From Spirogloea muscicola (Eukaryota; Streptophyta; Zygnematophyceae; Spirogloeales; Spirogloeaceae), in contig WELB01000192.1 in NCBI GenBank assembly GCA_009602725.1, positions 73,308 through 121,434 on the forward strand: 48,127 bases of DNA, in the 5' to 3' direction. Both the position numbers and the translations under genes were made by a program. Below, one piece after another: positions 22,489 through 48,127 of the stretch (positions are counted from its first letter, which is position 1; the number at the start of each line of letters is the position of its first letter). Below the pieces are notes generated by a model. That model was not told the DNA's origin, searched no databases, and saw only the letters and a list, made by a program, of their open reading frames with translations.

Positions 22489-24722
22489 CTAACGCTTGCC
22501 AAAGGAGCGGTCTCTGATGCCGGGTGCAATGTCATGCTCAACAAGGTTGAGAAGCTCAGTGACATTGACTGAAGTTGCTGTGTGGTGGTGGTGGCCACCC
22601 GAGGAGCGCAAGAGGTAAAAGTCGATATCGCACGCGTCTGCAAAGTGATTGAAGCACGCCACCCACTCCTCAACCGGCCTTATCTCGATCACCGCCGACC
22701 CCGATGGCATGAACACCATGTTAGTGAGGTGCGATCCATGTACGCCAATGAACAGGCGCACGGACTGGAAGAAGGCCATGGCCTCAAGCAGCGGCAGGCC
22801 GCCATTGGAGTCTGCAGGCGGGTAAGTGCGCACGCGGCTTGCACCAAATATCTGCACCAGGCCCACCTCCACAGCATCTGTCTCCGCCAGCTGGCGGGTT
22901 TTGTACCGCTTCCCAAGCACGACATGCCAGTCCTGCGCCTCCCTGCGGCTGGGCGTTTGTGCAGCACACGACGGAGTGGTTAAGAATTTGCCCAGGCTAA
23001 GTGTGAGCTCAGCTGCAGCACTGAAGTGGGCATTCAAGCTTAGCTTCCCATGCAGCGAGAGGAGGCTCTGATGGCAGGTGCAGAGAGAGGGAGGTGTGGA
23101 TCAGAGGAGAGGAAGCAGAAAGTGAAGTATGGGCCAGAGGGAGTTGCAACTCGCTGTGTAGACCAAGCGGGACACCACAGTGCAGGCTGCAGAGGCAAGG
23201 TGCAAACACTCACAAAGGAAAGAATGGGAGGGGGGGTCTGCTCGGCTTTGTGTCACGCAGTGGGTTGCGTGGTGCATTCGGCAGCAAGTACTTGGCACGG
23301 ACGTGTTGCCACACCTTCTTCGACGGTTGGGAGCAGGTCTGCAGTGGCAGCAGCCGGACCTTCAAGGGCATCGGCTTGGAGGGCAGGCCGCCCTGGCAGC
23401 GTGTATGAACGGCTTGTAGTAAGCAAGGGGGGGCCAGCAGGCATTCAAGAGCAGCCCACCTGGAAGTTGGGCATGATGAGGCGCTGCACATGGTACAGCT
23501 CGTTGGGCTTTAGCAGGTAGACATTGAAGCTCTCCACAGGCACACCCAGCAGCTCCGGCAAGTCAATGACGTCAATCTGCGCCCGCATCGTGCAGCGCTT
23601 CGCAGGTCGGGCCAGTGCGCAGGCTCAAGGATGTCATGCCCCCGGCTGCTTGAAGCATGACGGGTGGAGGGCATGGGCTGGGACAGAAAGCGGAGGGGGA
23701 GGAGGGGTACAGGAGCCCGGGGCTCACCTGGCCCTTGCGGTGTGCGATGGGAATGCCTGGCAGGTGCTCGCGAACTTTTTCGGTGGCCACATACATTGGC
23801 AGGACCTCGGCGACTCCGTGCCAGAAGTTGCCGGCGTTCCAGTGTGCCAGCGAGAGCATGTCCCGGAAGTACCATACCCTGGTTGCATTGGCGGAGTGGC
23901 TACAGAGGCGAGAGGCAGCAGAGAGAGGAGAGTGGAGGGGAGGAGGAGCAGCACCAGCTTGTTAATCAGCGAGCGTGCACAGAAGGAGGGACAACACCAC
24001 AAGCTCAAACTCAGGCGGCGGGGGGGGAGGAATATGAGCGGGGAGAGGGAAAAGGAGGGGTCCGTCACGAACTTAAAGTCGTCGTCGCAAGCGCAACCAT
24101 GCCGATTAAAGACGTGCGTCTCGTTGAAGGCATTGCCGGTTTCGTTGAGGTATACGTCCTCGAGCACCCAGGTGAGGGAAGATGAACTGGTCATTGTCCA
24201 GTGCCTGCTCTTTGTCGTCTGGCGGGAAGTTGCGTGGCGGAGGTATTGTGCGGGCCAAATCCAATGTAAGGTCGCTGTTGGCGCACGCCCGCACGGTGGA
24301 GAAGTTGCCGCTGCATGTCGAGAAGACCGGGCACTCTGTGACGTCGGAGCAGTGCAGCATCGTCTGGCGCCGCCGGAGATCTGGTGTCAGGTGCTGAGCC
24401 AGCATAGCCTCGGCCATCTCCTGGCGGACGAGGTCGCGCTGCAGCTGACCCACCTGCAACATCGTGCGCAAGGTCAAGTGTAGGGTCAGGCGAGGTCTGG
24501 CCCTCCAGCCTGCTGCAAGGTCAGCTATTGCTGATTACACACAGCGTTACACTAATGAGGCCGGGGATGGGGAGCCTGGCCGAGCATTGGCGGACTTTGT
24601 AGTGGCCATAGCCGCGGAAGGACCCATTGAAGACGTTGTCAGCGCCCACATCGCCGCCGTCTAGCACCCAGGGGGAGCCCGCCTCCAGCCGGAAGAGGGA
24701 GCTGCCACAGTAGCCCCTCCGC
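22489..24722 (-). pseudogene. GT61-family glycosyltransferase copy lacking exon 1, with a frameshift
   Basis: Minus-strand exons align one for one with the intact paralogue at 32317-35156: 24722-24596, 24453-24073, 23899-23728, 23576-23460, 23338-23214 and 22948-22489. Shared blocks are DNVFNGSFRGYGHYK, ECPVFSTCSGNFSTV, VWYFRDMLSLAHWNAGNFWH, GVPVESFNVYLLKPNELYHV, HVRAKYLLPNAPRNPL and IGVHGSHLTNMVF, the last being the GT61/DUF563 C-terminal signature. The exon 24453-24073 has 381 bases where the paralogue has 380. An extra T near 24178-24183 (CATCTTCCCTC against CATCTCCCTC) moves the frame from DNDQFIF to SLTWVLEDVYLNETG. No membrane-anchor exon is found upstream on this strand; retroelement sequence begins at about 24826. 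GT61 enzymes add xylose, arabinose or GlcNAc in the Golgi/ER. A sequencing error could mimic the frameshift, but the missing exon argues for a broken gene. Confidence 0.85.
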
Positions 24723-32316: not shown

Positions 32317-35156
32317 ATGCCACCGACAAGCATGGCATGGCTCGGTGGCGGTGGCAGAGGCGAGAAGGCCATTCAGGGCCTCGCCGCAGGCCCAAGCGGC
32401 GAGAATGAGAGGGCGGACGAGCACGTGTCACCCAGGGCTTCTGTGGCAGCATGGCAGCGCGAGGGCCTGAGGTGGCTGTATGCGCACCGGCCGGAGCGCT
32501 CAGGGTCGCCGCGCGGCCGCTCCCTGAGAGTGCCGCGGCCAGGAAAGCTGCAGTCGCCAGCGAGCACTGCACCTCTGCGCTGGCTCCTGGCGGTCTCCAT
32601 CGCAACTGCACTTGTCCTCCTGGGCGCCATCTACTACCAGAAGCTCGTGCAGGCCCTGTGTGGCCTCCTCCTCCCGTCCTCTCTCCTCTCTCTCCCTCCT
32701 CTCTCCTGATGCTCTCTCCCTCGTCTCCCTCACACATACCTACCAATTATGAGCACTCATTGCGAGGCAGCCAATCCATGCTGCAGAGCTTCTGACGCAA
32801 GTGGTTGGCTTGGCCTGCACTCAATTTTCTGCAGGCAGGACGGTGGCTGGGGTGGTGCCCCTCTTGGGCAGGCTGCCGGCAGTGCAGTTCTCCTCAAGGA
32901 GAGCAGTGATGCGGAGGCGACACCCCCTGATAACATCTTCAATGGCTCCTTCAGCGGCTACGGCCACTACAAGGTCCGCAGCGGCTTACTGCAGCTCCGC
33001 TCCTGTGCCCGACCGTCTCAAGGTGTGTTGAGGACGAAGGCGTGGAGGTTGGTGCTGACGTGGCAGGCCCTGGGGGAGAGACCCTGCTGACCTGGCAGCT
33101 GACCTGGCACTCGACGTAGCAGGTGGGCCTGCTCCAGGTCGACCTGCGGCGCAAGGACATGGACCTGGCATTCCTGGCCCAGCACTGGAACCCCAACAAG
33201 CAGCGTCGCCAGGTGGTGCTGGAGTGTCCTGGCCGCGCCGAGTGCCCGGCCTTCTCGTCGTGCGGCGGCAACTTTTCGGCTGTGCAGGCATGCGCCAACG
33301 GCGACCTCACGTCGGGCCCGGCGCACTACCTGCCGCCACCGCGCAACCAGCCGCCCAACAGCGAGGATGAGGCGCCGTTCCATGACCAGTTCATCTCCCT
33401 CACCTGGGTGTTTGAAAATGTGTACATCAACGAAGCCGGCCAAGTGTTTAATGAGACGCATGTCTTCGACCGCAATGGCTGCGGGGCTATTGCCGACTTC
33501 AAGTGCGTGCTGGCACCTCCTCCCTACTTGCAGCCCACTGCATTCTTCCTCCCCCCTCCCATCTTCATCAGTTGCCACCAGCTATTGCTGCCTCCTCTTG
33601 CACGCTTGGTTAAGACCGCTTGCCAGCCTCCTCCTTCCTCACTCCCCTATCTTTTGCTCCTGCACCTGCGTAGCTTCTACGCCACTGCGACCAAGGTGTG
33701 GTACTTTCAAGACATGTTGTCGGTGGCGCACTGGAATGGTGGCAACTTCTGGCACGCAGTCACCGAGGTTCTCCCGCTCTTTGTCGCGACTGAGAAGGTC
33801 CGCGCCCACCTGCCGGGCATCCCCATCGCCAACCGCCGCTCCCAGGTGTGTCGCCGACCTCCGCTCAGATTCGCAACCTCTTCTATAGCACTCACACCCC
33901 TGCTCACAGAATGTCCTCCTCGCTGCGGCCCTTGCGCGGCTGGGCACAAGCCCCCGCTTTTCTGCCTGCGGCGTGCAGCTCCCGCTTGACCCCAGCTTGC
34001 CACACAATGCTGACTTCGGTGCAGCTTGAGATGGTCGATTTGGCGGTGCTTGTGGGCGTGCCAGTCGAGAGCGTCAACTGGTACCTACTCTGGCCCAATG
34101 AGATCTTCCATGTGCAGCGCCTCATCATGCCAAATCACCAGGTGGGACTCGGCAGTGACCAAGTGCCATGCTCTGCTTGCATTCTGCACTCCATCTCTCA
34201 TACTATTATTATAATGGCCTGACCATTCATATCTTCCTCCTACCATTCCTCCCATCAATTCATGCCCGTCCTTGACGAGGCTCCTTGTCCAAATACGACC
34301 GCTGGTTGGCAGACGTGCGGTCACCCATCGAGGGCAGTGTTCTCACACATCCGAGCCAAGTACTTCATGCCAGGCGCGCCGCGCAGCCCGCTGCTCAGTC
34401 TGAGGCCGAGCAGTCACCTCCTGCCCTTCTTTGGGTGAGCAGCTCACAGCTGGACTGCTCCTTGCAGCCTGCCGGGCCTGAGGCCTGGCCCAGCAGTTGC
34501 AGTTCTGACTGCCCTGCTCGCATTTTTCCCCTGCTTCAACCCTCTCCTTTCCCAAGAAATTCCAAATCCTCCCTCCTCTGTCATTACGAAGGCCTGAGCT
34601 GTGGCTTGTATATTGCCTTCTCGCACTGTACTTTACTTCACAGCCTTGTCAAATCTGAGCATCCAAGTCAGGCACCAAGTCGACGCAATCAACTGACGTC
34701 GCCTGTGTGTGCCACATGCTGGCCAGCCAACGGGCGCTGGACTGGTACATTGTGCTGGTGAAGCGGTCCCGTAGCCGACAGCTGGTGGAGACAGACGCAG
34801 TGGAAGCAGGCCTGGTGCGCATCTTTGGCGCACGCCGCGTGCGCATCTTCGAGGGCGGGCTGCCACCGCTGGAGGCCATGGCCTTCTTCCACAAGGTGCG
34901 TTTTCTTGTCGGCGTGCACGGGGCGGGCCTCACCAACCTGGTGTTCCAACCACGGGGGTCGGCGGTACTAGAGATCCGGCCGATCAAAGAGTGGAATACA
35001 TGCTACCACCACCTCGCGGACGCGTGCGAGCTGGACTATTACCTACTACGGTCCACTGGCAGCCACCATAGTGTGACGTCCGCAAATGTCACTGAGCTCC
35101 TCGACCTTGTCAAACACAGCATCGCGCCAGGCATTCGGAGCCGCTCTTTTAGGTAA
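32317..35156 (+). CDS. GT61-family glycosyltransferase (DUF563), type II membrane protein
   Basis: Exons 32317-32657, 32835-32973, 33123-33502, 33674-33845, 34025-34141, 34313-34434 and 34727-35156 (TAA) join in phase to 566 residues. The N-terminal tail (about 1-88) is followed by a signal-anchor helix, LLAVSIATALVLLGAIYY, typical of Golgi enzymes. The lumenal part holds DNIFNGSFSGYGHYK, VFENVYINEAGQVFNETHVF, VWYFQDMLSVAHWNGGNFWH, EVLPLFVATEKV, GVPVESVNWYLLWPNEIFHV, HIRAKYFMPGAPRSPL, ETDAVEAGLVRIFGARRVRI and FLVGVHGAGLTNLVFQPRGS. The last is the GT61 hallmark (VHGAGLTN, then VLEIRP). Family members include plant beta-1,2-xylosyltransferase, arabinosyltransferases and EOGT; donor and acceptor cannot be told from the sequence. 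The donor after exon 2 is GTCCGC, unusual but shared with the paralogue at 22489-24722. Confidence 0.88.
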
Positions 35157-35860: not shown

Positions 35861-37180
35861 GCTTTCCGGCCCTTCGGACCTTGTCCAATCGTTTCAGGCT
35901 GGCCTTTCACAGCCATCGCCACCTTTGGGAGAGCCACTTTCTTGTTCGTTCTTTTATTCTGGGCTGGCCACTCACAGCTATCGCCCTCTACAGGAAGAGT
36001 CTCTCTCTCTCGTCCATTGGGAGAAGCCTTCTTTCACGCCTTATTTCGTTGACCGTGTGGTGGCTTGCCAGCCTATGAGACCGCCGTCCGATTAAGCAGG
36101 CCAGGGCAGATTGCCCATGGGGCAGTAAGCAGCTACAAAGCACTCAGTAACCCCTGCTAAGCAGCCTGAGGTTGAACAGAAGCGGCTGCTGATATCAAAA
36201 AATCGGCTGTAAACTGCCAGCCAGATGCATACAGGTGTTCATGACGGAGCCAAAACGGAGCGGTTAGAGAAACTTGGGCAGCTGCCGCCTGCCCCACAGA
36301 AGAAAGAAGAAAAAAGCGTTCGTCCATTGAGGATAGGGGCTGGAATAGCCAGCCCAAAAAAGAATGAACAGAGTACGAGAAGGGGCCAGGGGAAGCGCTA
36401 AGAAAAACAAGCACACAAAATAAACAAAGCAGCTACGAATCACTCAGTAACCCCTGCTAAGCAGCCGCAGATCAGAGATGCTAGGCTGCCTTATGTTGAA
36501 AGAAGAAGAGCTCGCCCATACAGAAGAGGGGCTGGCAAAGCCAACCCAAAAAGAATGGACAATGTCCAAAGCCAAAGGAAGAAGTGCCGACAAAGGACTA
36601 CACTACACAGCACGAGATGGTGCTGAGGGAGATTAAGATGGATGCTCAGTATCAACGTGTGAGCCTGTAAAACTGTCCACGTGTGGACTGTCTGCCTATG
36701 TTGATGGTCCCAGAAGGCTGGTGGGCCGTCCAGTGTTGCCGGTGCCTGGGCCACTATCCTTAAGGAATGGACAAGGTCTGAAGGAGCCGGAGTCGAAGCA
36801 GTCAGTTGTACGAAGGACTAGGACTAAGACATCAGCCAGGGAACGCTCAGTAACCTCTAGTCAGGAGATGCAAGTCTGAGTAGCTAGCCGACGGAAAGAC
36901 GTCGCCCTGACGGAAGCCGGAGGCCGCCGCCAATGCTCGGCCTGCGCGCAAGTGAACCGCGAAGGCAAGGGACTGCTGCATCGAGATGGCCAACCGCATT
37001 CGGAAGACTTGAGCGAGGGGAGGTACAGATACTTCTCTGCACCTCTGCACCATCTTGCACTTTGTGGTGTAGTCCTTTTTCAGCACCTCTTTCTTTGGCT
37101 TTGAACATTGTCCATTCTTTTTGGGTTGGCTTTGCCAGCCCCTCTTCTCAATGGGCGAGCACCTTCTTCTTTTCTTCTCT
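35860..37180. mobile_element. Retrotransposon 3' ends, several subfamilies
   Basis: Plus-oriented ends: 35870-35940 and 35955-36000. Minus-oriented: 36310-36490 (block GTTCGTCCATTGAGGATAG, hairpin, and antisense RLLSRGY tail near 36440-36480) and 36510-36590. 36760-36940 is a minus-strand coding tail (FRQGDVFPSASYSDLHLLTR) with its UTR. 37040-37180 is the plus-oriented subfamily with CTTTGGCTTTGAACATTGTC. Confidence 0.7.
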
Positions 37181-37489
37181 GGCAGGTACCCGTGGCAAAT
37201 GGTGGCGGGCCTGGCCGGCAGCTTATGGCGGGCCCGACCCGTCTGCGGTTGTGTAGTGTCAGGCTTATTTGTCGTGCCCAACCGGCTGGACTCATACCTG
37301 TAATCTGTGCGCCTTCCCCCTTGGAGCAATTTCCTTCATCAAATCTGTTTTCTCCACAGCCCCTCGCCCCGTTCGGAATGCGTGTGTATTAAGAGATGGA
37401 GGGCCATGTGTGGCCAAGTACGAAGGCAAGCACATTGACAAATGTACGTCACCTGCCGTTTGGAGGAAGAAGTGGCTCTCCCAATGGAG

Positions 37490-38640
37490 GCAAGGAGCGC
37501 AAATACGTGGATCACCCGGTTGGTAATACGCGGCCCTAGCGATCGATGTACACGGGGATTTCGGCAGCCGCTGGCTGGATCTCCTCCAGCGGCTTACCCG
37601 TCAGGCCATCTAGACTTTCCTGCAGCCGGGTCGCTGGCGGAAGTGTATCGAATGCGCCTGGCCGTCTCGCTGCAGAGGTCTATGGCCCGCTGATATGTCA
37701 TCGCTGATGTGGTAACTGCCGATTGCGTTGATTCGGCCAACCCCGCGAGGTCCGCGACGCTCGTCGGGCACGCGGTCGCTCTGGCGGCTCGGAGTAAGGA
37801 GCGCAAGTACTCTGACCACCCTCCAGGCGATGCCTTCGTACTCTGTTCATTCTTTTTCGGGCTGGTTGTTCCAGCCCCTATTCTCAATGGGCGAGCACTT
37901 TCTTCTGATGCCTTCGCGGCACTGGCCATTGACGTACACGGGGCATTTGGAAGTGGCTGGTTGGATCTCCTCCAGCGGCTTGCCCGGGAGGCCATCGAGC
38001 GGCGGCAGGGTTCGCCAGGCTTCAATGCTGCCGGCTCCCTCTCGCAGGTCTTTCGGATGAGGCTGGCGGTCTCGCTGCAGCGCTCTTTGGCTCTTCTTCT
38101 TCTTTGGCTCATGCGGTCCACGCGCGGGCTGGCCGTGCTATGGCTGCTGCTTCCGGGTCTCGGCAAAGTGCCGCTTCTCCTGCTCCGAGTTACTCTGATC
38201 TGCTGTTGCTCACACGTGGATACTGAGCAGCCATCTGCATCTCCCTCTGCACCATCTTGCACTTTGTAGTGTAGTCCTTTTTCAGCACCTCTTTCTTTGG
38301 CTTTGAACATTGTCCATTCTTTTTGGGTTGGCTTTGCCAGCCCCTTTTCTCAATGGGCGAGCACCTTCTTTCCATGGCCCGGGCGTTGCACCTTCGTGCC
38401 GGCACTCGCTGCTGCCTCTGGCTCTGGCCCGGGGACCCACTTCCACAAGCCTAGCATCTCCGACCTGCGGCTGCTTAGCAGAGGTTGCTGAGTGATTCGT
38501 AGCTGCTATGTTTCTCTGTGTGCTTGTTTTTCTTAGCGCTTTCCCTGGCCCCCTTCTCGTACTCTGTTCATTCTTTTTTGGGCTGGCTTTTCCAGCCCCT
38601 ATGCTCAATGGCCGAGCACTTTCTTCTATTGACCGGCGGG
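37490..38640 (+). mobile_element. Nested plus-strand retrotransposon copies with a TSD-flanked mini-insertion
   Basis: 37490-37690 is one degraded C-terminal remnant. 37695-38080 is a second: ADVVTTADCVDSANPARSAT, SKERKYSDHPPG, then after the insertion DAFAALAIDVHGAFGSGWLD, LLQRLAREAIERRQG and VFRMRLAVSLQRSLA. 38150-38385 carries SYSDLLLLTRGY with the CATTGTCC-type UTR and hairpin. 38400-38630 is the SISDLRLLSRG(C/Y)-type tail with CTCGTACTCTGTTCATTC, hairpin and terminal block. Confidence 0.75.
37829..37916 (+). mobile_element. 68-bp retrotransposon 3'-end insertion with 10-bp target-site duplication
   Basis: GATGCCTTCG occurs at 37829-37838 and again at 37907-37916. Between them (37839-37906) are 68 bases beginning TACTCTGTTCATTC, with the stem-loop CGGGCTGG..CCAGCCCC and ending in CGAGCACTTTCTTCT. 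Removing the insert and one duplicate restores the frame DHPPGDAFAALAID of the host copy, so the insertion is younger than the host fragment. Confidence 0.8.
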
Positions 38641-38681
38641 CCTCGCTTTGGCTGCCAACTTGCCCTGCCAAGGACGTGGCT

Positions 38682-39005
38682 ATGTCCAGCAGCACTGACA
38701 TGTGTCTTCTCGCACAGCACGCTATACAAGTCATTAACGGCGAGCCAGGAAGCCAGAATGACCTGTCAGCAAGGAGAGTCCTCGCGGCCACCTTAAGATC
38801 ACTCTGGTCCTGGAACCTCATCGTTACAGCTGTAGTGATCGCCCTCTGTGTGCTCTTACCAGGCAAAAGGCAATGGCTACATGCCAACAACCTCAGTAGC
38901 ATTCAACCTCCAGAACATTGGGCAGGCAATGTGTCCAGCACCTCACTGCAAAAAGGGCCGTGGAATCGAGACAGTCATGGAAGACTGGTCAAGCTGGAGG
39001 AGTAA
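38682..39005 (+). CDS. Hypothetical small membrane protein (107 aa)
   Basis: The frame from ATG 38682 to TAA 39005 starts MSSSTDMCLLAQHAIQVING and has one strong hydrophobic helix, WNLIVTAVVIALCVLLPG, around residues 53-70. A polar tail with an N-glycosylation-type NVSS follows. A basic stretch (SARRVLAATLR) precedes the helix, so a type II signal anchor like those of the GT61 proteins nearby is possible; this could be a first exon whose partners are lost. It begins about 45 bases after a retroelement end. I do not recognise a family and it may not be a gene. Confidence 0.3.
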   Translation: MSSSTDMCLLAQHAIQVINGEPGSQNDLSARRVLAATLRSLWSWNLIVTAVVIALCVLLPGKRQWLHANNLSSIQPPEHWAGNVSSTSLQKGPWNRDSHGRLVKLEE

Positions 39006-40232
39006 CCAACTTTTGTGACTATTACGTTGTTATCAAGACGTCTTGACACAATTTTGCTCACTTGTGAGATAGCGTACTAAGCCTGCTTCCAGCGAGGAAT
39101 CTTCTTGAGATAGAGTGAACCCCTCAACTGACGGAGTCAGAACCGAGAGGACGTTGTTCCTGCAGTCTACCCTCACAGAGTTCATGTGAGGCTTGAAGCC
39201 GAAGCTGATTTGCAACTAACTACGGGACGAACACCACGTGGGCGGCAAGCGACAAGGAAGCAAAAGCTGAGATGGGGTCTGTATTATCATAAGTGTATAA
39301 GTGCAAGATTCTCCAGGGCAAGCCGAAGGTGGGGTTCATTCGCCCAGGCTCTCTCACGTCTCTACCTCCCGCAGAACCTTCTCTCCGACACCCGTCACTG
39401 TTCTAGGCTGATACCCGTCAGGGGGAGGATGAATCACTCAATAGGAACGAGTCATTCATCCTACTGATACCCGTCCACTGCTTTAGTTCCTGAGCGGGTC
39501 AATGCAGCAGCATGCGGCCCAGAATTGTGTATGTATGTTCCTGGTTAGATCTAACCGCTCTGCCCCTCTATCATTTGGTACACTATGTACATTGGGCCAG
39601 GGTTTCATGCACAACCGTAAGACAGGGATCATTCTCCAGCTAGATCGCCACACAAATTTACAAAGTTTCAAGGCATCTCGTACTCAAATTCAACTTGAGC
39701 TTCGCGAGGCATCAATGACGCATCCCACCACTGCTTTGATACCAGGGCCGTCTGTAAAAGAAGTCTTGTGCCATGCTGGCCTCACGCTTGCTTCTTGGGA
39801 AGCTGTTCACCTCAAGGCAAGGCACGACTGAACACACTGCACATGGACTGACTCTTAGCCAACTGATGCAAGCAATGTGGGCGTCAGAAGCGGGGAGCCT
39901 CAACAAAATTAGCCTCCGTCGCCGTCATCGATCTCGCGCCAGCTTCAGTGGCATCCCACCCCTAAGTCTCTCTTCGTGCATGCATCAATTCCTGGAGGAA
40001 GCGGACTGCCTGGCTAGGTGGTGGCCAGCCTCCCAACCATCCACTGATTATGAGGCTCTCCTGGGTAGCGGACCGGAGTATATCTTGCGTAACTCTTATG
40101 CCAATAGGGTCCATTTTAAGGGCAGCTTACTAGCGCCACAGCCTGAGCTATCCTCAGTTTCTGTGGCGGATATCGAAATTTGCGTGCAGGCCCCGCGCGA
40201 GTGGTCACACGCTGCATCATACGCCTGCAAAG
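39006..40232. other. Unassigned region with overlapping open frames and a flanked inverted repeat
   Basis: Overlapping plus-strand frames at 39502-39831 and 39773-40246 have no recognisable family. An imperfect 13-bp inverted repeat (39427-39439 with 39449-39461, one mismatch) is flanked by the direct repeat CTGATACCCGTC at 39409-39420 and 39464-39475. No retroelement ends are seen here. Confidence 0.4.
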
Positions 40233-40505
40233 ATGTCCGGCGATGAAGAGATGAGGTCCAGCCTTATTCATAGCGCGCAGCAGACCTTGGGAGACCTGGT
40301 GTACACGGTTGTCTTCGATACCTGCAATGAGATGATATCAGCGGGGCTGGAGCAGGGCACAGTGCTCGAGTGTGCCAACCTAGTAGTAAACAAGTACGTT
40401 AACGAGGGCATAAAAATGCGCAAGAAACCTGCGCCTAGAGCCGCTAAGCCCAAGCAGCGCCATTGTAACAGTCAACGTCCTAGATCCAGAAGTCCTGACA
40501 GCTAG
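40233..40505 (+). CDS. Hypothetical small basic protein (90 aa)
   Basis: ATG 40233 to TAG 40505. The first two thirds look like a compact helical domain (TLGDLVYTVVFDTCNEMISA, VLECANLVVNKYVNEGI), followed by a basic tail (MRKKPAPRAAKPKQR) ending RPRSRSPDS, which resembles a nuclear-type or nucleic-acid-binding tail. I do not recognise the family. Even composition and the domain-plus-tail layout make it more plausible than other frames nearby. Confidence 0.35.
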   Translation: MSGDEEMRSSLIHSAQQTLGDLVYTVVFDTCNEMISAGLEQGTVLECANLVVNKYVNEGIKMRKKPAPRAAKPKQRHCNSQRPRSRSPDS

Positions 40506-40869
40506 CATGTACAGAGTCGGTAAGCGTGCACACGATCAATTGCAATCTCTTGCAAATATGTATGCATACATGTGCCTTGGTCATAGCAGAACTCCGTGCA
40601 CTTCTTCATTTATTCATCAAACAAGCATGTGCATGCATGAGATGCGTGCATCAAGCATGCATGTGTCTGCCTAAGGTGCACAGACCATATGCTTAAGAAG
40701 GAAGGTGATGGACGAGTTGGCAGGTGGTGTAGCAGGTGGTTGCCTGACACCAGCTTACGCAACACACCTACTCATTGTTTTATTGTACTGTAAAATAGAA
40801 AAGATCAGGATTTCTCCTTTTCAGAAGCTTCTTACATGTTATCACCCTTTCCTGAACGGCCCTTGCTGG
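40506..40869. other. Intergenic, GCATGC-rich stretch
   Basis: 40555-40670 is rich in overlapping ATGCAT/GCATGC motifs (at least eight GCATG or CATGC words). No gene is visible. Confidence 0.4.
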
Positions 40870-42300
40870 CTGCTAGTAATGTTACTGAGCGTTCCCTGGC
40901 TAATGTCTTAGTACTAGTCCTTCGCACGCCGGCTCCTTCAGATCTTATCCATTCCTTTGCCTACGACCGCTCACACCCAGCTCAATGTGCCTCCAAGGCC
41001 GGGTATGCGGTCGCCTGCGCTGCTCGGGCCAAAGAGCTGAAGTACGCGGACCATCCGCGGGAAGACGAGTTCTTCCCGTTGGCCATTGATACCCATGGGG
41101 CGCTGGGCGCTCGGTGACTCGAGCTGCTCACCCAGCTCGCCCGCCACACCATCGCCCGTCGCTTCCATGGGGAGCCGGTCGACTTTCCTGCAGTCGGGTC
41201 GCTGGCGCAAGTGTATCGAATGCGCCTGGCCGTCTCGCTGCACAGGAAGCGCGGCCAGATTGACTGGTGGCTGGGAAAGGCCAGCCCAAAGGAATGGACA
41301 AGGTCTGAGGGAGCCTGAGTGCGAACGACTAGGACTAAGACATCAGCTAGGGAACGCTCAGTAACCTCTAGTCAGGAGCTGCAGAGGTCTATGGCCCGGG
41401 CGTTGCACCTTCGTGCCGGCAGAGCCCTCGCTGCTGCCTCTGGCTCTGGCCAGGGGACCCACTTCAACGAGCCTAGCATCTCCGACCTGCGGCTGCTTAG
41501 CAGAGGTTAACTGAGTGAATCTCCTGTAGCTCTTTGGATTTTGTCCATTCTTTTTTGGCTGGCTTCTGCCAGCCCCTCTCTTCTATGGGCGGATGGCCGC
41601 ATCCACACCCGGCGCGCCGACCTCGTCGCCAGCGCGCTCGGCGGGGGGCCTCGGCTCATCGCAGACGTGGTCACCACTGACAGCTTTGCTTCCAACAGTG
41701 CAAAACGCTCGTCGGAGGAGGCGGGCTACGCAGTCGGCCAAGCGGCGGGCGAGAAGGAACGGAAGTACTCTGACCACCCGGTGGGCGACGAGTTCGTTCC
41801 ACTGGCAGTGGACGTGCACGGAGCCTTTTGGCTCTTTGGCTCCAAATGGCTTGACTTGCTCCACCGCCTGGCGCGGCGTGCAGCGGCCCGCCGCCTCGGG
41901 CAGTAGGGCGAGCAGCCCGGCTTCAACGTAGCCGGGTCCCTCGCTCAGGTGTTCCGTATGCGTTTGGCCGTCTCGATGCAGCGGGTCCCTCGCCGTCGCG
42001 GTTCACTTGCGCGCAGGCCGAGCTTTGGCGGCGGCCTCCGGCTTCCGTCAGGGCGACGTCTTTCCACCAGCTAGCTACTCGGATCTGCATCTCCTGTCTA
42101 GAGGTTACTGAGCGTTGCCTGGCTGATGTCTTAGTCCTAGTCGTTCGCACTCAAGCTCCCTCAGACCTTGTCCATTCTTTTGGGCTGGCCTTTCCCAGCC
42201 ACCAGTCAATCTGGCCGCGCTTTTCTATGGGCGAGCTCATTCTCTTTGGGCTGGCCTTTCCAAGCCACCAGTCAATCTGGCCGCGCTTTTCTTTAGTAAT
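40870..42300 (+). mobile_element. Plus-strand retrotransposon copies abutting the GT37 fusion gene
   Basis: 40955-41245 encodes AKELKYADHPREDEFFPLAI, DTHGALGAR, then TGA (41115-41117) where the copy at 29290-29550 has Trp, then LELLTQLARHTIARRFHGEP. 41245-41390 is an inverted end, and 41390-41520 an LLSRG tail. 41590-42235 is the most 5'-extended copy: TRRADLVASALGGGPRLIAD, VVTTDSFASNSAKR, KERKYSDHPVGDEFVPLAVD, VFRMRLAVSMQR, YSDLHLLSRGY, UTR and hairpin, with a premature TAG near 41905. 42236-42296 is a second hairpin end in tandem. The RRADL..IADV segment resembles the PD-(D/E)XK-like domain at the end of some retroelement ORFs; that is an inference. Confidence 0.7.
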
Positions 42301-42442
42301 GTCTAAAGTAAGCAGGAAAACTGATGGACTCCCTGTCTCATATGAATACTGTATTCAGATCTCAGAAGTTTCCACGAACTAGTAAAATTGTCGGCACCTA
42401 CTTAGGCAAAGGACGAAGTGGAGCAGTACCGCTCAGCAGCCC

Positions 42443-42457
42443 ATGGCCGTCGCTTAG
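42443..42457 (+). promoter_or_regulatory. Short upstream ORF before the GT37 fusion start
   Basis: ATG GCC GTC GCT TAG lies 15 bases before the chosen start at 42472. If it lies in the transcript it would be a four-codon uORF. The transcription start is unknown. Confidence 0.3.
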
Positions 42458-42471
42458 CCGCAGCGCCGCGC

Positions 42472-42472
42472 A

Positions 42473-42514
<42 letters not shown>

Positions 42515-45500
42515 GTGGAGGAGGAGGACGTTGTGTGTCCCTCGTAGTCTTGCAGCTACTGCTGCCGTTGCTGCTGCTTCTGCCACCGCTCGTCGCCGCC
42601 GCCCAGACTCCTCGCCGCCACCACCGGCTGCGCGTGTCCGACCCCGAGTACTGGCTCCAGCGCCTCGGCAACGCTTCCGACGGTGGTGCGCGCTCGCGCC
42701 CCCGCCGTCGCCGCGCTCGCCGCCGCGCTTGCCGCTGCGCTGCCGAGGCGGCCGCAATCGATCGCCAGGNGGCGCGGCCTCAGGCGGCGGCGGCGGCGGC
42801 GGCGCCACGCACGCCCGGCTCCTCAGCCGCCTCCGCCACTACGACGCCTTCCACCACGACGTGCGTTACTCAGGGCCGCGCCGTCAGTTTTCTGGCGCCG
42901 TTTCGTTGGCGTTGCCTCCGTCGACACCCCGGCGGCCTCCTTGGAGCTGCCTGCAGAGCAGGGGCCGAGACTGGCAGCCTCGTCCTGCACAAGCGCCAGC
43001 GCCCGACTCGCAACTGACGCTTCGTGGCGATGGCAGTGCCTCGCTGCGGCGGAGGTGCCGCTGGCCGAGCTGGTGCGCGCGCGGCAGCCGCCGCCGTGCG
43101 CCTACCTGCTGTGGCGCCGCCGCCCCAGCGAGAGCCTCGCGTCCCAGATCCTCTCCCTGGTCTCCGCCTTTGCCTATGCCCTCGTCTCCGAGCGCGTCCT
43201 GCTGCTCGCCGGCGCCGGCGACGACGACGGAGCCGCCACCGCAGGCGCCGAAGGCACCGCTTCCCTTGCGGACCTCTTCTGCGAGCCGTTCCATCGCTCG
43301 TCCTGGCGGCTCCCGCCCAGCTTCCCGCTCGCCGAGCTCGCGAGTGGCGCGACCGCTGTGCAGGACTACTTGTCGTCGGCGGCAGCGCAGCAGCAGCTGC
43401 AAGCGGCTCCGTTCGCCGTCGCAGGTGCCATCCTGGCTGATGACAAGTCGTGGGCCGCGCTGTTCTGCAACAACGCCACCCATGACGCCGGGCACCTGCT
43501 GGCGGCGCCGCCCTTCCTCCTCCTCGAGAGCGACCAGTACTTCCTGCCGAGCGTCGCCGCCATCCTCCCGGACGGGCGGCGCCGCGCGGAGTTTGCATCG
43601 CTGCTCCTCGCGCCTGGCGCTGCGCCCTTCCGCGACCTCTCGCACTTCCTGCTCCACCCTGCCAATGCCATCTGGGACCGTGTCAGCCGCTACCGCAGGG
43701 AGCACGCCCCGGGCGGCGGCCTCACTGCCACTCTCGGCGTGCTGCTGCCTCCCGGCAGCTCCATAGCTAAGCGGGAGGACATTGGGCAGGCCGTTCTCCA
43801 ATGCGGGCAGGCTCGGGGCATCCTCCCTGCGATATCGGCCGCCAGTGCAACCAACGTTTCCATCAAAGTGCTCGTCACTGGCAGTGAGGAGGTCGCTGAA
43901 GTCCTGGCCGCTGCGCTTGGGGGTGACAAGAACTCCGCACTTGCAGTCCTTCACCCGGCGACCGATGGCAATCAAGCTCTGCTGCCACTGGGTGGAGGCG
44001 GTAGCATCGTCAGCATCGACGAGCGCGACGTCTTTGAGCTCTGGCTCCTGTCCCTCTGGTTGGTCCTGCCAATTCCCCCTCTTAGGGCAGCAATTGCTTA
44101 GACGCCACTGTCGGTCCTCAATGTTTCTGAATATCTCTGTTCCGCCGTCACCACACAGCGACGACCTCATATCGGCGACCCCCATATCGTCGGCAGCGAC
44201 CGTCGTCCATGGGCTGGCAGGCGCTGCACCGTACCTTCTCACCAAGAGCGAGGGGGTGGCAGCAGCTCCTTGCCGCCCGGCGTCCTCTGAGGAGCCGTGC
44301 TTCTGGCAGGCCCCTGCTGATGGTGCATGCAGTGCCCGAGCTTTCGCTCTTCATGACAAGCTCAGCAAGACCAGCAACTTTGTCAAGGTTTGCGATGATG
44401 GTAGCCCTAGACTGCAGCTCGTGCCTAGCGCGTTCTTGGAAGCAATGGACGAGGACAAGGGCGAGGAAAGTGGCAAGGTCAAACTGCAGTGGGTGGGGGC
44501 AGACGCAGTCGAGGCTGGAGTTGCCGCTGCCACAGAGGCGACCGCCAGCAGCATATCAAGTGGCAGCAGCAAGGGCGGCGGCATTCCAGGCAGCCGCCTG
44601 CACTTGGCTGGTGAGGTGAAGCGCTTCCGTGAGCGTATGGCTTGCCTCAGCCGCACTGGGCGATGGGCTCGCAACGATGCCCCCCGGCCGCTCTTCTGGG
44701 GCTGGCTGGGCTGGACGGCAGACCAGTGCGATCGGCGCCTTGCGGAGCTGCGCGGCGGCGTTCACGGCGAGGAGGCAGATATACGGGCCAGGTACATATT
44801 ATTTGCTCGTCAAGATCCATCGGCTTCAGCTCAACAGCTGTTGCAAATTGCGAGGCTGAGCCGCCTGAGGTTTTTCACAGCTCAGGCGGCGCCTGGAATG
44901 TGCGAGAAGCATTAAAGTACGAGTGGGTTGTGGAGGACACAAGCTGCGCGTGGCAGGAATTGACGCGAGAAGGGCTGTGCCGGTAGTGCTCCTCGACTTC
45001 CATCTCTCCTGCACCAACTCTCCCAGCAATTTATTGACGATTGCAGATCCTGTACATTGGTTGCAATGGTGCTCATTGATTGTTATCAGCTGACCAGCAA
45101 GACTGCCACGCAGCTATTGCTGAGCAATTTTCTGCTGTGCCATCTGTGTAGTGCAATTGGTCCACAGCGTAATATTCTGATTGTCGGTGATTCGATAAGC
45201 GGGCAGACATGGGAGTCGATGACAAACGTGCTCCATGGAAGGCGCTTTCAGGCGGAGCCTGACACAAAATGCAGCTGGCACGGCATGTGGAACTACACGT
45301 GCCCCAGCCTTTGCTCCGACCTCCTGGGCGCCGGGAACGGGTTCTCCATGACGTATGTCAGGAACGACGTGATCTCAGGTGGGACACTTCTCATTGTATC
45401 ACAGTGCTCATTGGCCGGAGGTATAAGGCAAGACACTGCAGTGTTGAGTCAAATGTTCATATCCACCATTCATCTTCTGGCAGGTAGGAAGGAAGTTAAC

Positions 45501-46227
45501 GGCGATCCTGTCCACAATGTATATGAGTCCCCTTGGCAACATGTTGTGAAGGAGCAAGATGTCAAGATCGTCATCCTCAACTTGGGTGCTCATTACCAGG
45601 TGGCCAGTCCAAAGCTTATGTGCTGCCTGCTTGACAAGCGGTTCACAAGAGGAATAAAACCTGGATTCTGAGGAGCTTCTTTCTAGTGGCTCACAGAGCT
45701 GGCACTGGTCCTCTTGGCCGTTCCCTCCTGCCAATCGCCCTTTTTGCACTTTCACCGAATCTTAGACTGCGAAAACTGTCTGACTGATTGATTTCAGTCA
45801 CTGTCTTGCGCGGTCTGCCAAACAGCCGGACACGCAGTACGCCAACTATCTGACTTCGGCCCTGGCATTCCTCCGGGAGAAGCACCCCCAGGTCCTGACG
45901 ATCTTCCGGAACACTCCTGCCGGCCACCCGGAGTGCTGGAAGTACATAACGCCACTTGAGCAGCCTCTTGAAGTCTCTGGCACGCCATACCATTGGGACA
46001 GATTTAACGGCCAGAATCGGATTGCCCAGGAGCTGGTTGAGGTTGCTGGTGGCATCTACATGGATGTCGCGACTATGACCGCCCTTCGACCCGACGGTCA
46101 CTACACAGATCACTTCTCCAACGTGAGCCTGGGCACAGACTGCTTGCATTATTGTCAGCCTGGGCCGGAGGATGCGTGGATCCAGCTTCTGTACAATATG
46201 CTTGTTTTACTGGGCTCCAAATTGTAA
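42472..46227 (+). CDS. Fusion protein: GT37 fucosyltransferase-like domain plus TBL/PMR5 PC-esterase (O-acetyltransferase-like) domain
   Basis: Exons 42472-42682, 42769-42860, 42962-44058, 44159-44791, 44881-44982, 45152-45378, 45484-45599 and 45826-46227 (TAA) join in phase to 959 residues. Residues 2-18 are an Ala-plus-poly-Gly run, followed by a hydrophobic signal (VVLQLLLPLLLLLPPLVAAA). The GT37 part (about 85-500) matches plant xyloglucan fucosyltransferases: LLSRLRHYDAFHHD, ILSLVSAFAYALVSERVLLL, DLFCEPF (205-211), SSWRLPPSFPL, LESDQYFLPSVAAILPD, HFLLHPANAIWDRVSRY, ELWLLSLCDDLISATP, VVHGLAG, EEPCFWQAP. The usual GxGNR is replaced by SLASQ (159-163). Then comes a TBL-type region (GRWARNDAPRP, KYEWVVEDTSCAWQELTREG), GDS at 724-726, LNLGAHYQ, VLTIFRNTPAGHPEC, LRPDGH and DCLHYC (D931, H934). 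TBL proteins O-acetylate wall glycans in the Golgi. One N (42770) lies in exon 2. The first two introns are the least certain part. Confidence 0.85.
42480..42515 (+). repeat. GGC trinucleotide run encoding poly-Gly
   Basis: A run of GGC codons, turning into GGT/GGA, directly after the start codon of the GT37 fusion gene. It encodes about 17 glycines before the signal peptide and may vary in length. Confidence 0.8.
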
Positions 46228-47032
46228 TGGTCAGTTAAATCATGGTGAGCGAACATGGTCTCTTACTGTTCTTGTGTTGGACACATCATTGCATGTAAAT
46301 CAGGCAGCATTTGCCTTAAGATCTTCCATTGAGATACAGCAACCTTCATGGCTGCTGATGGCACGCCAACCCTCTACTCATGGTCAACTGTTCGCTCTGT
46401 ACGTGCATCTCTATTCTCTGGCAAGGGGCAAGTCGTCTTATTTGTCAGCAAGTGTGCAATTTGGACATGTACAAGCAAAGCTTTCAGAGCCTGTTCATGG
46501 GCTTGCTTACATGTGACTTGCTACCACACCCCCGAACACAATCACAATCAGATACATAACTGCGAGTTGTCATCCAGCAGAGTAGCAGGAAGTGGCTATT
46601 GTAAGGGGCTCTGAGTGGACCAACACTTCGTCAAGTAAAACAGGAGCAAGAAGCCTGGTACTGCCAAATGTTTTGGCAAACTACCCTGGCCTAAGAGCCA
46701 GGGTAGTTTGATTATGATTGACAAATACAACTCAAGACTACAGAAGCCTAATGCAGGCTCTACGCAATAAGCTGTGCCTAGGCCTAGCAAGTACGAAACT
46801 TCAATCACTCCCAAGGGCATTGCACTTATTGCTGTCATGCAGCAGAAAATGGGGACATCCCCTCTACTCTTTGGAAACATGGGTTGAATAGGGAAGCCAT
46901 CGAAGTGTTAGTAAAAACTGGAATTTTAGTTCAAACTAGAGTTGAGCAATAACCACAGCAGCTTGTTGTCATGGATGCACCATGTAGGCAAGCTCCGTGC
47001 AGCAGAGCAGCCTACTAGTCACTCAGACGATG
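46228..47032. other. Intergenic region between the convergent GT37 fusion and HRGP genes
   Basis: No gene seen. It contains the 3' UTRs of both convergent genes and a perfect 14-bp hairpin at 46677-46710, listed separately. Confidence 0.5.
46677..46710. other. Perfect 14-bp stem, 6-nt loop hairpin
   Basis: CAAACTACCCTGGC (46677-46690), loop CTAAGA, then its exact reverse complement (46697-46710). It lies between two convergent genes. It could be a 3'-end processing or termination structure, a small-RNA precursor or a tiny transposon relic. The sequence shows only the inverted repeat. Confidence 0.7.
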
Positions 47033-48127
47033 TCAGAGGGTTGTGACAGCATTAGAAGTTGACATTATGAAGCTAAAGCCCGCCATAAGTTCCGCAAGTT
47101 CTTGGCTCTCAGCATACTCCAGAAGGACTGCACGGCGGTGCTTGCCCATTGGGGGAGTTGGAGCCTTGTGCACTGGTGGCGGCAGGTGCCGGTGTTTGCC
47201 GCGGGGCCGCGGGGGCGGCGGATGCTTGTGATGGCCCTTGCCAGGCGGGTGGTGGCCTTTGCCCTTCCTCTTGTGCTTCTTGTTCTGGTTTGGTGCGTTG
47301 CCCGGCGGAGGCGGCGGCAGCGGCGGCGGCGGCCGTGGCGGCCACAGTGTGGGCGGAGGCGGCAGAGTGGCCAGGCTAGGAGCGGCAGGCGGCGGCAGCA
47401 AAGGCGATGGCACCAAAAGTGGTGGCGATGTCAAGGCTGGGGCTCGGGGAGGCGGGTTGAGTCGTTGCGAAGGTGAAAGAGGTGGCGAGGACACAGTCAG
47501 CCCGGAGGGCTTTACAGGTACAGGTGGCGGCGGAGACAATAGCGGAGGGGAGTCTGGTGGCAGCTGAGGTGGATTAATAGAGGGGGGGCCGACGTGCGAC
47601 GGTGGCGGCGTCACTGGAGGCGGTGAGTCCTCCAAAGGTGGCGGGGAAGGAGGTGGAGGAGGGTCCAGTGGCGGAGCTGGAGAAGGGGGCGGAGATGAGG
47701 GTGGGGGTGACGCGGGAGGAGGGGAGGCCAGCAGAGGAGTTGGCGAGGAGGGAGGCGGATAGTCCACCACTGGTGGCGGAGTTTGTGGTGGGAAGCTGGG
47801 GGGCGGGCTGGGTTGCGGCCATGAAGGGGAGGCTGGCTCCGGTGCTGGCGATGCTGGTGGCTGTAGTGACGGTGGCGTGTAGGTTGGTGGAGGGGAGGAG
47901 GGAGGAGATAGAGTGACGGGCGGCGGTTCAAGCCGAGGGGGAGACGGACGGTGGGGAGAGGGAGGGGACGGCAGCAGTGGCGGCAGCGGAGAAGGTGAGG
48001 GGAGCTGAGGCGAAGGCGGCGGACTGTGCTTCAGCGGCGCCGCTGGTGGTGTCACCTGCCGTGGAGGGCTGGCCGGCGGGGGTGGAGGAGAGTGGTGAAT
48101 GGGGGGGGGGCTGGGAGGAGGAGGGGG
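47033..48127 (-). CDS. Proline-rich hydroxyproline-rich glycoprotein (extensin/pherophorin-like), N-terminus beyond window
   Basis: A minus-strand frame with no stop from the window edge to 47033. Most of it is Pro/Ser/Leu repeats of the SPPP, SPPPP, PPSP and PPPSPPP type, with few other residues, as in extensin modules and the rods of algal pherophorins. Near the C-terminus it changes to a basic Lys/His/Gly/Pro stretch (NKKHKRKGKGHHPPGKGHHK, GKHRHLPPP, GKHRR), then a non-repetitive tail (LLEYAESQELAELMAGFSFI) ending SNAVTTL. Such proteins are secreted, hydroxylated and O-glycosylated wall or matrix proteins. No signal peptide is visible because the 5' end is missing. Low complexity makes the exact exon structure uncertain. 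Confidence 0.7.
   Translation of the reverse strand, partial: PPPPPSPPPIHHSPPPPPASPPRQVTPPAAPLKHSPPPSPQLPSPSPLPPLLPSPPSPHRPSPPRLEPPPVTLSPPSSPPPTYTPPSLQPPASPAPEPASPSWPQPSPPPSFPPQTPPPVVDYPPPSSPTPLLASPPPASPPPSSPPPSPAPPLDPPPPPSPPPLEDSPPPVTPPPSHVGPPSINPPQLPPDSPPLLSPPPPVPVKPSGLTVSSPPLSPSQRLNPPPRAPALTSPPLLVPSPLLPPPAAPSLATLPPPPTLWPPRPPPPLPPPPPGNAPNQNKKHKRKGKGHHPPGKGHHKHPPPPRPRGKHRHLPPPVHKAPTPPMGKHRRAVLLEYAESQELAELMAGFSFIMSTSNAVTTL

What the first reader, a model, noticed from the sequence alone, without database searches (positions are those of the whole stretch)
42472..46227. Single-frame fusion of a GT37 fucosyltransferase-like domain with a TBL/PMR5 PC-esterase domain
All exon junctions are GT-AG and in phase from the signal peptide to DCLHYC, with no internal stop or alternative start between the domains. 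In plants these are separate proteins: FUT1 (GT37) fucosylates xyloglucan and AXY4/TBL27 O-acetylates the galactose of the fucosylated side chain. A fusion would couple the two modifications on one glycan. I know of no described protein with this architecture. The esterase Ser726 (GDS) and D931-x-x-H934 are intact.
Basis: partly seen in the sequence, partly recalled or inferred. Interest (0 to 1): 0.9.

Follow-up and report, generated by a model that had tools for sequence, protein, structure and literature searches.

The report
Dead fucosyltransferase fused to sugar acetylase
A green alga carries one gene that joins a fucosyltransferase-like half, apparently stripped of its catalytic residues, to an intact-looking cell-wall sugar-acetylating half, suggesting that a retired sugar-adding enzyme was reused as a helper for a second enzyme.

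Summary
The spliced model (42472-46227, 950 aa) matches Pfam XG_FTase/GT37 (E 6e-35) and PC-Esterase (E 4e-15). The GT37 end and the TBL-type C-x4-G-R-W motif share one exon. A collinear second copy on contig C380, about 10% diverged, keeps exons 3-8 without indels, all GT-AG junctions and an open frame; exons are 94.6% and introns 86.9% identical. That argues against mis-assembly and two genes. Of 8 contigs with GT37 matches, only these two also have PC-Esterase matches. The GT37 half lacks GxGNR, GIQxR (R366 of AtFUT1) and STFGY in both copies; the genome's other 6 GT37 loci (two genes) keep all three. The esterase triad motifs are intact and this half is more constrained (dN/dS 0.10 against 0.40; controls mixed). 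Best reading: a TBL-type O-acetyltransferase (or esterase) whose GT37-derived domain is a non-catalytic glycan-recognition or scaffold module. Expression, activity and occurrence in other species are untested; the N-terminus is uncertain.

The parts
42472..46227 (+). whole gene: GT37-like / TBL PC-esterase fusion, 8-exon model, 950 aa
42472..42682 (+). exon 1: Gly run and hydrophobic segment (residues ~17-47; signal peptide or type II anchor); boundaries uncertain and not conserved in copy C380
42784..42886 (+). exon 2 (LLSRLRHYDAFHHD; resemblance to plant FUTs is recalled); splice sites uncertain, chosen donor not GT in C380; a single N lies at 42770 in intron 1
43000..44058 (+). exon 3: most of the GT37-like domain
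43133..43147 (+). SLASQ at the place of GLGNR (AtFUT1 G181-R185)
43733..43753 (+). LGVLLPP facing IGIQVRV in the phmmer alignment (AtFUT1 R366 faces P355; G351 in the MAFFT alignment)
44159..44791 (+). exon 4: C-terminal part of the GT37-like domain, linker, and start of the esterase module in one exon
44187..44201 (+). SSAAT at the place of STFGY (AtFUT1 482-486)
44643..44669 (+). CLSRTGRWA, TBL/PMR5N-like C-x4-G-[RKV]-W-[VA] motif
44881..44982 (+). exon 5: YEWVVEDTSC, equivalent of the TBL W-x4-C segment
45152..45378 (+). exon 6: GDS block of the PC-esterase
45186..45194 (+). GDS, nucleophile S717
45484..45599 (+). exon 7: NLGAHYQ segment
45826..46227 (+). exon 8: C-terminal PC-esterase block and stop
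46138..46149 (+). DCLH, the D-x-x-H of the triad (D922, H925)
46294..46298 (+). TGTAA downstream of the stop (its role as a poly(A) signal in some green algae is recalled); in 42000-47500 it occurs at 46223, 46294 and 46600 only, but ATTAAA lies at 44911 and AATAAA at 45653

Best explanation
One gene encodes a probably secretory-pathway protein made of an N-terminal GT37-derived domain that has lost three conserved family motifs and a C-terminal TBL/PMR5 PC-esterase module with an intact Ser-Asp-His triad. The second half most likely transfers acetyl groups to, or removes them from, a wall glycan by the TBL acyl-serine mechanism (inferred from family). The first half is most likely a non-catalytic module that keeps a fucosyltransferase's acceptor-binding shape and so recognises or positions the glycan, or serves as stem and dimer scaffold, for the acetyl reaction (inferred). 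Shown here: the domain pair, the shared exon, conservation of the frame in a diverged copy, motif loss in the GT half, and triad motif retention in the esterase half. Not shown: expression, localisation, substrate, activity.
For: Pfam XG_FTase E 6.4e-35 and PC-Esterase E 4e-15 in one product. PDB sequence match to AtFUT4 9nqh E 1.7e-22 and AtFUT1 5koe E 2.5e-19. ESKIMO1/XOAT1 6cci is matched weakly (whole-sequence E 0.0045, neither stretch significant alone) at the GDS block and at DCxHxC-PG. GT37 end and C-x4-GRW in one exon; that motif hits 14 times in 453,856 six-frame residues of loci picked for TBL and GT37 genes (12 TBL-like hits at 10 places, 1 fusion copy, 1 apparent chance hit) and once in the window's 96,250, at 44643. 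Copy on C380: 2,539 exon nt with 0 indels, 94.6% identity against 86.9% in five introns (Fisher p 7.5e-11), all GT-AG. dN/dS 0.30 [0.20-0.41] over residues 106-950, esterase 0.10 [0.05-0.20], GT37 0.40 [0.24-0.64]. Three motifs kept in 6 of 6 other GT37 loci (two genes) and 0 of 2 fusion copies. 18 of 44 columns invariant in four other GT37 rows are changed in the fusion, 11 of them in the three motifs. In land plants XGOAT/AXY4 acetylates only fucosylated galactose in vitro (PMC11360243 and PMC9201394 passages), a functional link between the two families.
Against: No transcript. The GT37 half is still constrained (dN/dS interval below 1, no indels from exon 3 on) and keeps the D300 equivalent, so some activity cannot be excluded. 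Constraint is not diagnostic: the motif-intact C59-type GT37 gives dN/dS 0.62-0.64 and a plain TBL (C90) 1.08, while the C67-type gives 0.04-0.09. Between the domains the intervals include 1: tail and linker 0.49 [0.20-1.78], PMR5N-like part 0.58 [0.19-3.99]. Three of the five introns also lack indels, so the exon frame alone is weaker evidence than the identity contrast. PMR5N (PF14416) is not detected, and the R-N that follows GDS in several TBLs of this genome reads S-G here. The binding role is inference; the structure model was unusable (pLDDT 33.8).
Confidence: 0.6

Rival explanations
1. Bifunctional enzyme: an active GT37 fucosyltransferase and an acetyltransferase on one chain.
For: GT37 profile score far above cut-off; D300 equivalent kept; GT37 half under some constraint.
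Against: No arginine in the GIQxR segment; GxGNR and STFGY gone in both copies, kept in 6 of 6 other GT37 loci. Chain 5kx6 of AtFUT1 carries K at the R366 position where 5koe has R, so that site has been probed; that R366 is needed for activity is recalled.
Confidence: 0.07
2. The GT37 half is a decaying passenger or mere stem with no role beyond length, kept only because the gene starts there.
For: Motif loss; dN/dS four times that of the esterase half.
Against: No stop or indel in exons 3 and 4 of either copy at roughly 10% divergence; dN/dS interval 0.24-0.64 excludes 1; 26 of 44 family-invariant columns kept.
Confidence: 0.2
3. Two neighbouring genes, or two transcripts from one locus (intron retention ending at the stop 44913-44915; internal start at 44445 or 44637).
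For: In-frame internal ATGs, and a stop on intron retention; ATTAAA at 44911 and AATAAA at 45653, possible poly(A) signals; GC3 falls from 0.79-0.91 in exons 1-3 to 0.58-0.71 in exons 4-8.
Against: The TBL N-terminal motif shares an exon with the GT37 C-terminus; the fused frame is open in both copies with no indel over 2,539 exon nt; no TGTAA between the domains; the twelve best hydrophobic windows listed all lie at residues 17-47, so an internal start would lack an evident secretion signal.
Confidence: 0.05
4. The GT37 half is still a glycosyltransferase but with a different donor or mechanism (neofunctionalised).
For: Profile match and residual constraint; D283 and the HPANAIWD block kept.
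Against: The motifs lost are shared by the plant and algal GT37 compared here, and no arginine stands in the GIQxR segment.
Confidence: 0.08

Closest known systems
Arabidopsis FUT1 / FUT4 (GT37, Pfam XG_FTase)
   Same: Domain covered from profile position 99 to 470 of 475; CEPF, YF.PS, HP.N..W and EPCF blocks shared.
   Different: GLGNR, GIQVR (R366) and STFGY absent; C-terminal PC-esterase added.
TBL/PMR5 polysaccharide O-acetyltransferases (XOAT1/ESKIMO1, XGOAT/AXY4)
   Same: GDS nucleophile block, DCxHxC-PG end block, C-x4-GRW start motif.
   Different: N-terminal GT37-derived domain of about 400 residues; PMR5N segment below Pfam detection; SG instead of RN after GDS.
The genome's own two other GT37 genes (contigs C67/C9/C137 and C59/C105/C210)
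   Same: Same family; all-motif versions of the domain.
   Different: No PC-Esterase match on those six contigs at E 0.001, nor any match to the fusion's esterase half in the fetched loci at E 0.5.
C7orf58-type proteins (ATP-grasp fused to PC-esterase, animals)
   Same: A PC-esterase carrying a second catalytic-type domain N-terminally (PMC2824669 passages).
   Different: Different partner domain; animal-specific.

Membership tests
GT37 xyloglucan-type fucosyltransferase | Match to Pfam PF03254 above its curated cut-off | tested here: met
   121.1 bits against 23.4
GT37 xyloglucan-type fucosyltransferase | G-x-G-N-R motif near the N-terminus of the domain | tested here: not met
   SLASQ; 6 of 6 other GT37 loci match G[LV][GA]NR, a pattern widened after to admit their GLANR
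GT37 xyloglucan-type fucosyltransferase | GIQ[VI]R with the donor-site arginine (R366 of AtFUT1; that it is the donor-site residue is recalled) | tested here: not met
   LGVLLP, R faces P355 in phmmer and G351 in MAFFT; 6 of 6 other loci keep it
GT37 xyloglucan-type fucosyltransferase | S-T-F-G-Y motif | tested here: not met
   SSAAT in the window; LAAAT in C380
GT37 xyloglucan-type fucosyltransferase | Fucose transfer from GDP-fucose | not testable with these tools
   needs enzyme assay
TBL/PMR5 PC-esterase | Match to Pfam PF13839 above cut-off | tested here: met
   57 bits in the whole protein, 60.8 in the C-terminal part, cut-off 27
TBL/PMR5 PC-esterase | GDS and D-x-x-H catalytic motifs | tested here: met
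   GDS at 715-717 and DCLH at 922-925, both aligned with ESKIMO1; kept in C380
TBL/PMR5 PC-esterase | N-terminal PMR5N/TBL domain | tested here: inconclusive
   PF14416 not reported at E 10, but C-x4-G-R-W and W-x4-C are present in order
TBL/PMR5 PC-esterase | Secretory N-terminus (signal or type II anchor) | tested here: inconclusive
   Hydrophobic segment in window exon 1, not found in the C380 copy, which has an N there
XGOAT/AXY4 (acetylates fucosylated galactose of xyloglucan) | Acetyl transfer to XXFG/XLFG | not testable with these tools
   needs enzyme assay; the next best matches of the esterase half in the genome are remote (E 1.2e-4 and weaker)

The most novel reading that the evidence does not exclude
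A 'reader-writer' wall enzyme: a fucosyltransferase that lost donor chemistry but kept acceptor or product binding was fused to a TBL acetyltransferase, so that acetylation is directed to galactose-bearing, perhaps already fucosylated, side chains. It would be a covalent, single-chain version of the dependence of AXY4/XGOAT on prior FUT1 action in land plants, found in an alga.
Probability: 0.28. Interest if true: 0.75.

Novelty: new variant of a known kind. Interest (0 to 1): 0.55.

Why it matters
In land plants GT37 and TBL enzymes act one after the other on the same xyloglucan galactose, and XGOATs need the fucose to be there first (passages). A natural fusion of the two families would make that link physical, and the loss of conserved motifs turns the fusion into a test of whether a retired glycosyltransferase can serve as a glycan-binding module for another enzyme. 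It would also warn against annotating such proteins as fucosyltransferases from a Pfam hit alone.

Tried and rejected
Mis-assembly was judged very unlikely: the same fusion sits on a second contig, about 10% diverged. A local frameshift as the cause of motif loss was rejected: no GxGNR, GIQxR or STFGY pattern appears in any of six frames of window 42301-46300 or of L017. Other fused paralogs in the genome: none among 8 GT37 and 30 PC-Esterase contigs other than C192 and C380, at E 0.001, exon by exon and as lower bounds; the esterase half finds only these two copies strongly. Relative constraint as proof of decay was dropped, because controls are mixed. An AlphaFold model of exon 3 from two sequences was useless (pLDDT 33.8) and no fold search was made. 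One scan of viral contigs with the esterase half found nothing; prokaryote genome contigs were not scanned.

Not answered: the 5.8-billion-protein search; a search of the own genome with the GT37 half as protein; a GRAS-domain search meant to place the organism. Presence in other species is therefore untested. Both other GT37 genes fall on three contigs each, and several TBL groups on two or three, judged by near-equal scores only; GT37, GT61 and TBL are all present. Spirogloea muscicola has a reported genome triplication (PMC11712027 passages). That the window is from it is a guess, not a result.

Literature: no title or abstract start listed by searches names a GT37-PC-esterase fusion. Lists were capped in 72 (8 of 1,058), 76 (8 of 110), 77 (8 of 27) and 78 (8 of 11). 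PMC9915684 reports 209 Pfam domain combinations unique to Zygnematophyceae (passage); its tables were not read and could hold this pair. Searches and look-ups failed.
Full report
What was checked. The window (48,127 bases) is contig C192:73308-121434 of an unnamed 153-Mb, 471-contig genome. I rebuilt the gene from the sequence. Exons: 42472-42682, 42784-42886, 43000-44058, 44159-44791, 44881-44982, 45152-45378, 45484-45599, 45826-46227, giving 950 residues without a stop. The five introns from 44059 on were settled by frame and site context. The first two were not: within the ranges scanned, one search lists 10 and 28 permitted GT-AG pairs, my choice among them is arbitrary, and my donor at 42887 is not GT in the second copy. 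Introns are 89-226 nt.

Two domains, one chain. Pfam gives XG_FTase (E 6.4e-35, residues 136-510, profile 99-470 of 475) and PC-Esterase (E 4e-15) and nothing else up to E 1. The parts scanned alone give E 7.8e-36 and 2.7e-16, with two weak extra matches for the second part below their cut-offs. By sequence the nearest solved structures are AtFUT4 (9nqh, E 1.7e-22) and AtFUT1 (5koe, E 2.5e-19) for the first half. For the second half the nearest is ESKIMO1/XOAT1 (6cci) at E 0.0045; neither of its two stretches is significant alone, but they are the GDS block and DCxHxC-PG.

One gene, not two. The TBL N-terminal motif C-x4-G-[RKV]-W-[VA] was counted in six-frame translations: 14 hits in 453,856 residues of fetched loci, which had been picked for TBL and GT37 genes and partly overlap (eleven redundant loci left out). 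Twelve hits, at 10 places, look like C-D-L-type TBL starts, one is the C380 copy of the fusion and one looks like chance. The window has 1 hit in 96,250 residues, at 44643 inside exon 4. The same exon carries the GT37 C-terminus (EPCFWQAP, FVKVCDD). A second copy lies on contig C380. Six blocks of 84-91% DNA identity match, five of them in the same order from window 32.2 kb to 48.1 kb and one 277-nt block out of order; no block of 250 nt or more was found for C380:1-10000 or C380:28001-38000 against the window and the next 10 kb of C192. In this copy exons 3-8 align over 2,539 nt without an indel, with AG and GT at every junction between them, and the frame is open. Exons are 94.6% and the five introns 86.9% identical (138 of 2,539 against 90 of 685 differences, Fisher p 7.5e-11). 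Three of the five introns also lack indels. Exon 1 is different: the hydrophobic segment of the window is not found in C380, and both copies have a single N nearby (window 42770, L017:1701). The N-terminus therefore stays open.

In-frame ATGs do exist between the domains, at 44445 and 44637; ATTAAA lies at 44911 and AATAAA at 45653. If intron 44792-44880 is kept, the frame of exon 4 stops at 44913-44915. A short GT37-only product is possible in principle.

The GT37 half looks catalytically dead. On the 5koe alignment, R366 of AtFUT1 faces P355, G181/N184/R185 of GLGNR face S/S/Q, and T483/F484/G485/Y486 face S/A/A/T, while D300 faces D283 and is kept. In the MAFFT alignment the register at GIQxR differs and the arginine faces G351; LTATLGVLLPP holds no arginine in either case. 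The numbering offset of 82 is inferred from the D of KTDNYF being D300; it puts the arginine of GIQVR at 366, the position at which chain 5kx6 has lysine. The same genome holds two other GT37 genes, each on three contigs (C67/C9/C137 and C59/C105/C210). All 6 loci carry G[LV][GA]NR, GIQ[VI]R and STFGY; the window gene and L017 carry none of them in any frame. The six are copies of two genes, not six independent cases, and the first pattern was widened to admit GLANR seen. Of 44 columns invariant in AtFUT1, AtFUT4, C59-type and C67-type (159 shared columns; algal rows are joined blocks with guessed edges), the fusion keeps 26, and 11 of the 18 changes fall in the three motifs. In leave-one-out comparison C59-type, C67-type, AtFUT4 and AtFUT1 keep 44 of 57, 65, 52 and 45 columns, where the fusion keeps 31, 37, 30 and 26; the overall deficit is moderate, and the weight lies on where the changes fall. 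How far D300 matters is disputed in the literature (PMC9201394, passages). That R366 is needed for activity is recalled, not read.

The esterase half looks alive. GDS (S717) and DCLH (D922, H925) are intact in both copies. Mutation of these motifs abolishes activity in five plant TBLs (PMC11360243, passages). Between the copies dN/dS is 0.10 [0.05-0.20] for residues 703-950, 0.40 [0.24-0.64] for the GT37 half, 0.49 [0.20-1.78] for residues 511-617, 0.58 [0.19-3.99] for 618-702, and 0.30 [0.20-0.41] for 106-950. This contrast fits the reading but does not prove it. Controls between other duplicate contigs range widely: GT37 C67-type 0.04 and 0.09, C59-type 0.64 and 0.62, TBLs 1.08, 0.05, 0.78 and 0.15.

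One such gene, in two copies, in the genome as searched. At E 0.001 PC-Esterase matches (63) fall on 30 contigs and XG_FTase matches (21) on 8; only C192 and C380 are in both lists. The searches work exon by exon and call their counts lower bounds. The other six GT37 loci show no match to the esterase half at E 0.5 in the fetched flanks. The esterase half's next best genome matches are remote (E 1.2e-4).

How it may work. TBL enzymes transfer acetyl through an acyl-serine intermediate, and XGOAT/AXY4 acts only on galactose that already bears fucose (PMC11360243 passages; PMC9201394 passages). A GT37 that binds the same galactosylated side chain but no longer transfers fucose could present that side chain to the acetyltransferase. 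This step is inference. Acetylesterase activity in place of transferase is equally open from sequence. A rival with real weight is that the GT37 half is only a tolerated passenger or stem.

Known and not known. [quoted passage not shown] GT37 sequences occur in charophycean algae (PMC8211770, passages) and are expanded in Zygnematophyceae (PMC9915684, section 10). PC-esterase fusions named in the passages I saw of the defining paper are with a 10TM acyltransferase, ATP-grasp and adhesion-type domains (PMC2824669). No title or abstract start in the answered paper searches names a GT37 fusion (four of these lists were capped). The large protein database was off, so I cannot say whether other algae have the pair.

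Noticed in passing
window 22492-23100 (-) and 34659-35153 (+): Two GT61-family exons (PF04577, E 3.8e-9 and 6.2e-10) in the same window; the second has a counterpart beside the C380 copy of the fusion (C380:14947-15171). The genome search lists 36 GT61 matches (lower bound).
   Followed up: partly
window 797-1240 (+): MlaE permease exon (PF02405, E 9e-45); likeness to plant TGD1 is recalled.
   Followed up: no
window 7453-7860 and 12280-12690 (+): Glutamate synthase (GOGAT) exons: GATase_2 E 2.3e-42 and Glu_synthase E 1.2e-26.
   Followed up: no
window 47036-48127 (-): Long open frame rich in PPPPSPPP, like a hydroxyproline-rich wall glycoprotein by eye; no Pfam hit.
   Followed up: no
window 36000-43000: Dense dispersed direct and inverted repeats, arms up to 166 nt at 92%, reaching up to the start of the fusion gene.
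   Followed up: no
genome contigs, e.g. C67/C9/C137, C59/C105/C210, C53/C194/C5, C29/C337/C97, C8/C6/C24: Several wall-enzyme genes seem to occur on three contigs each, others on two (grouped by near-equal scores), as in a triplicated genome; the fusion is found on two.
   Followed up: partly
window exons 1-3 against 4-8: GC at third codon positions falls from 0.79-0.91 to 0.58-0.71 along the gene; cause not determined.
   Followed up: no
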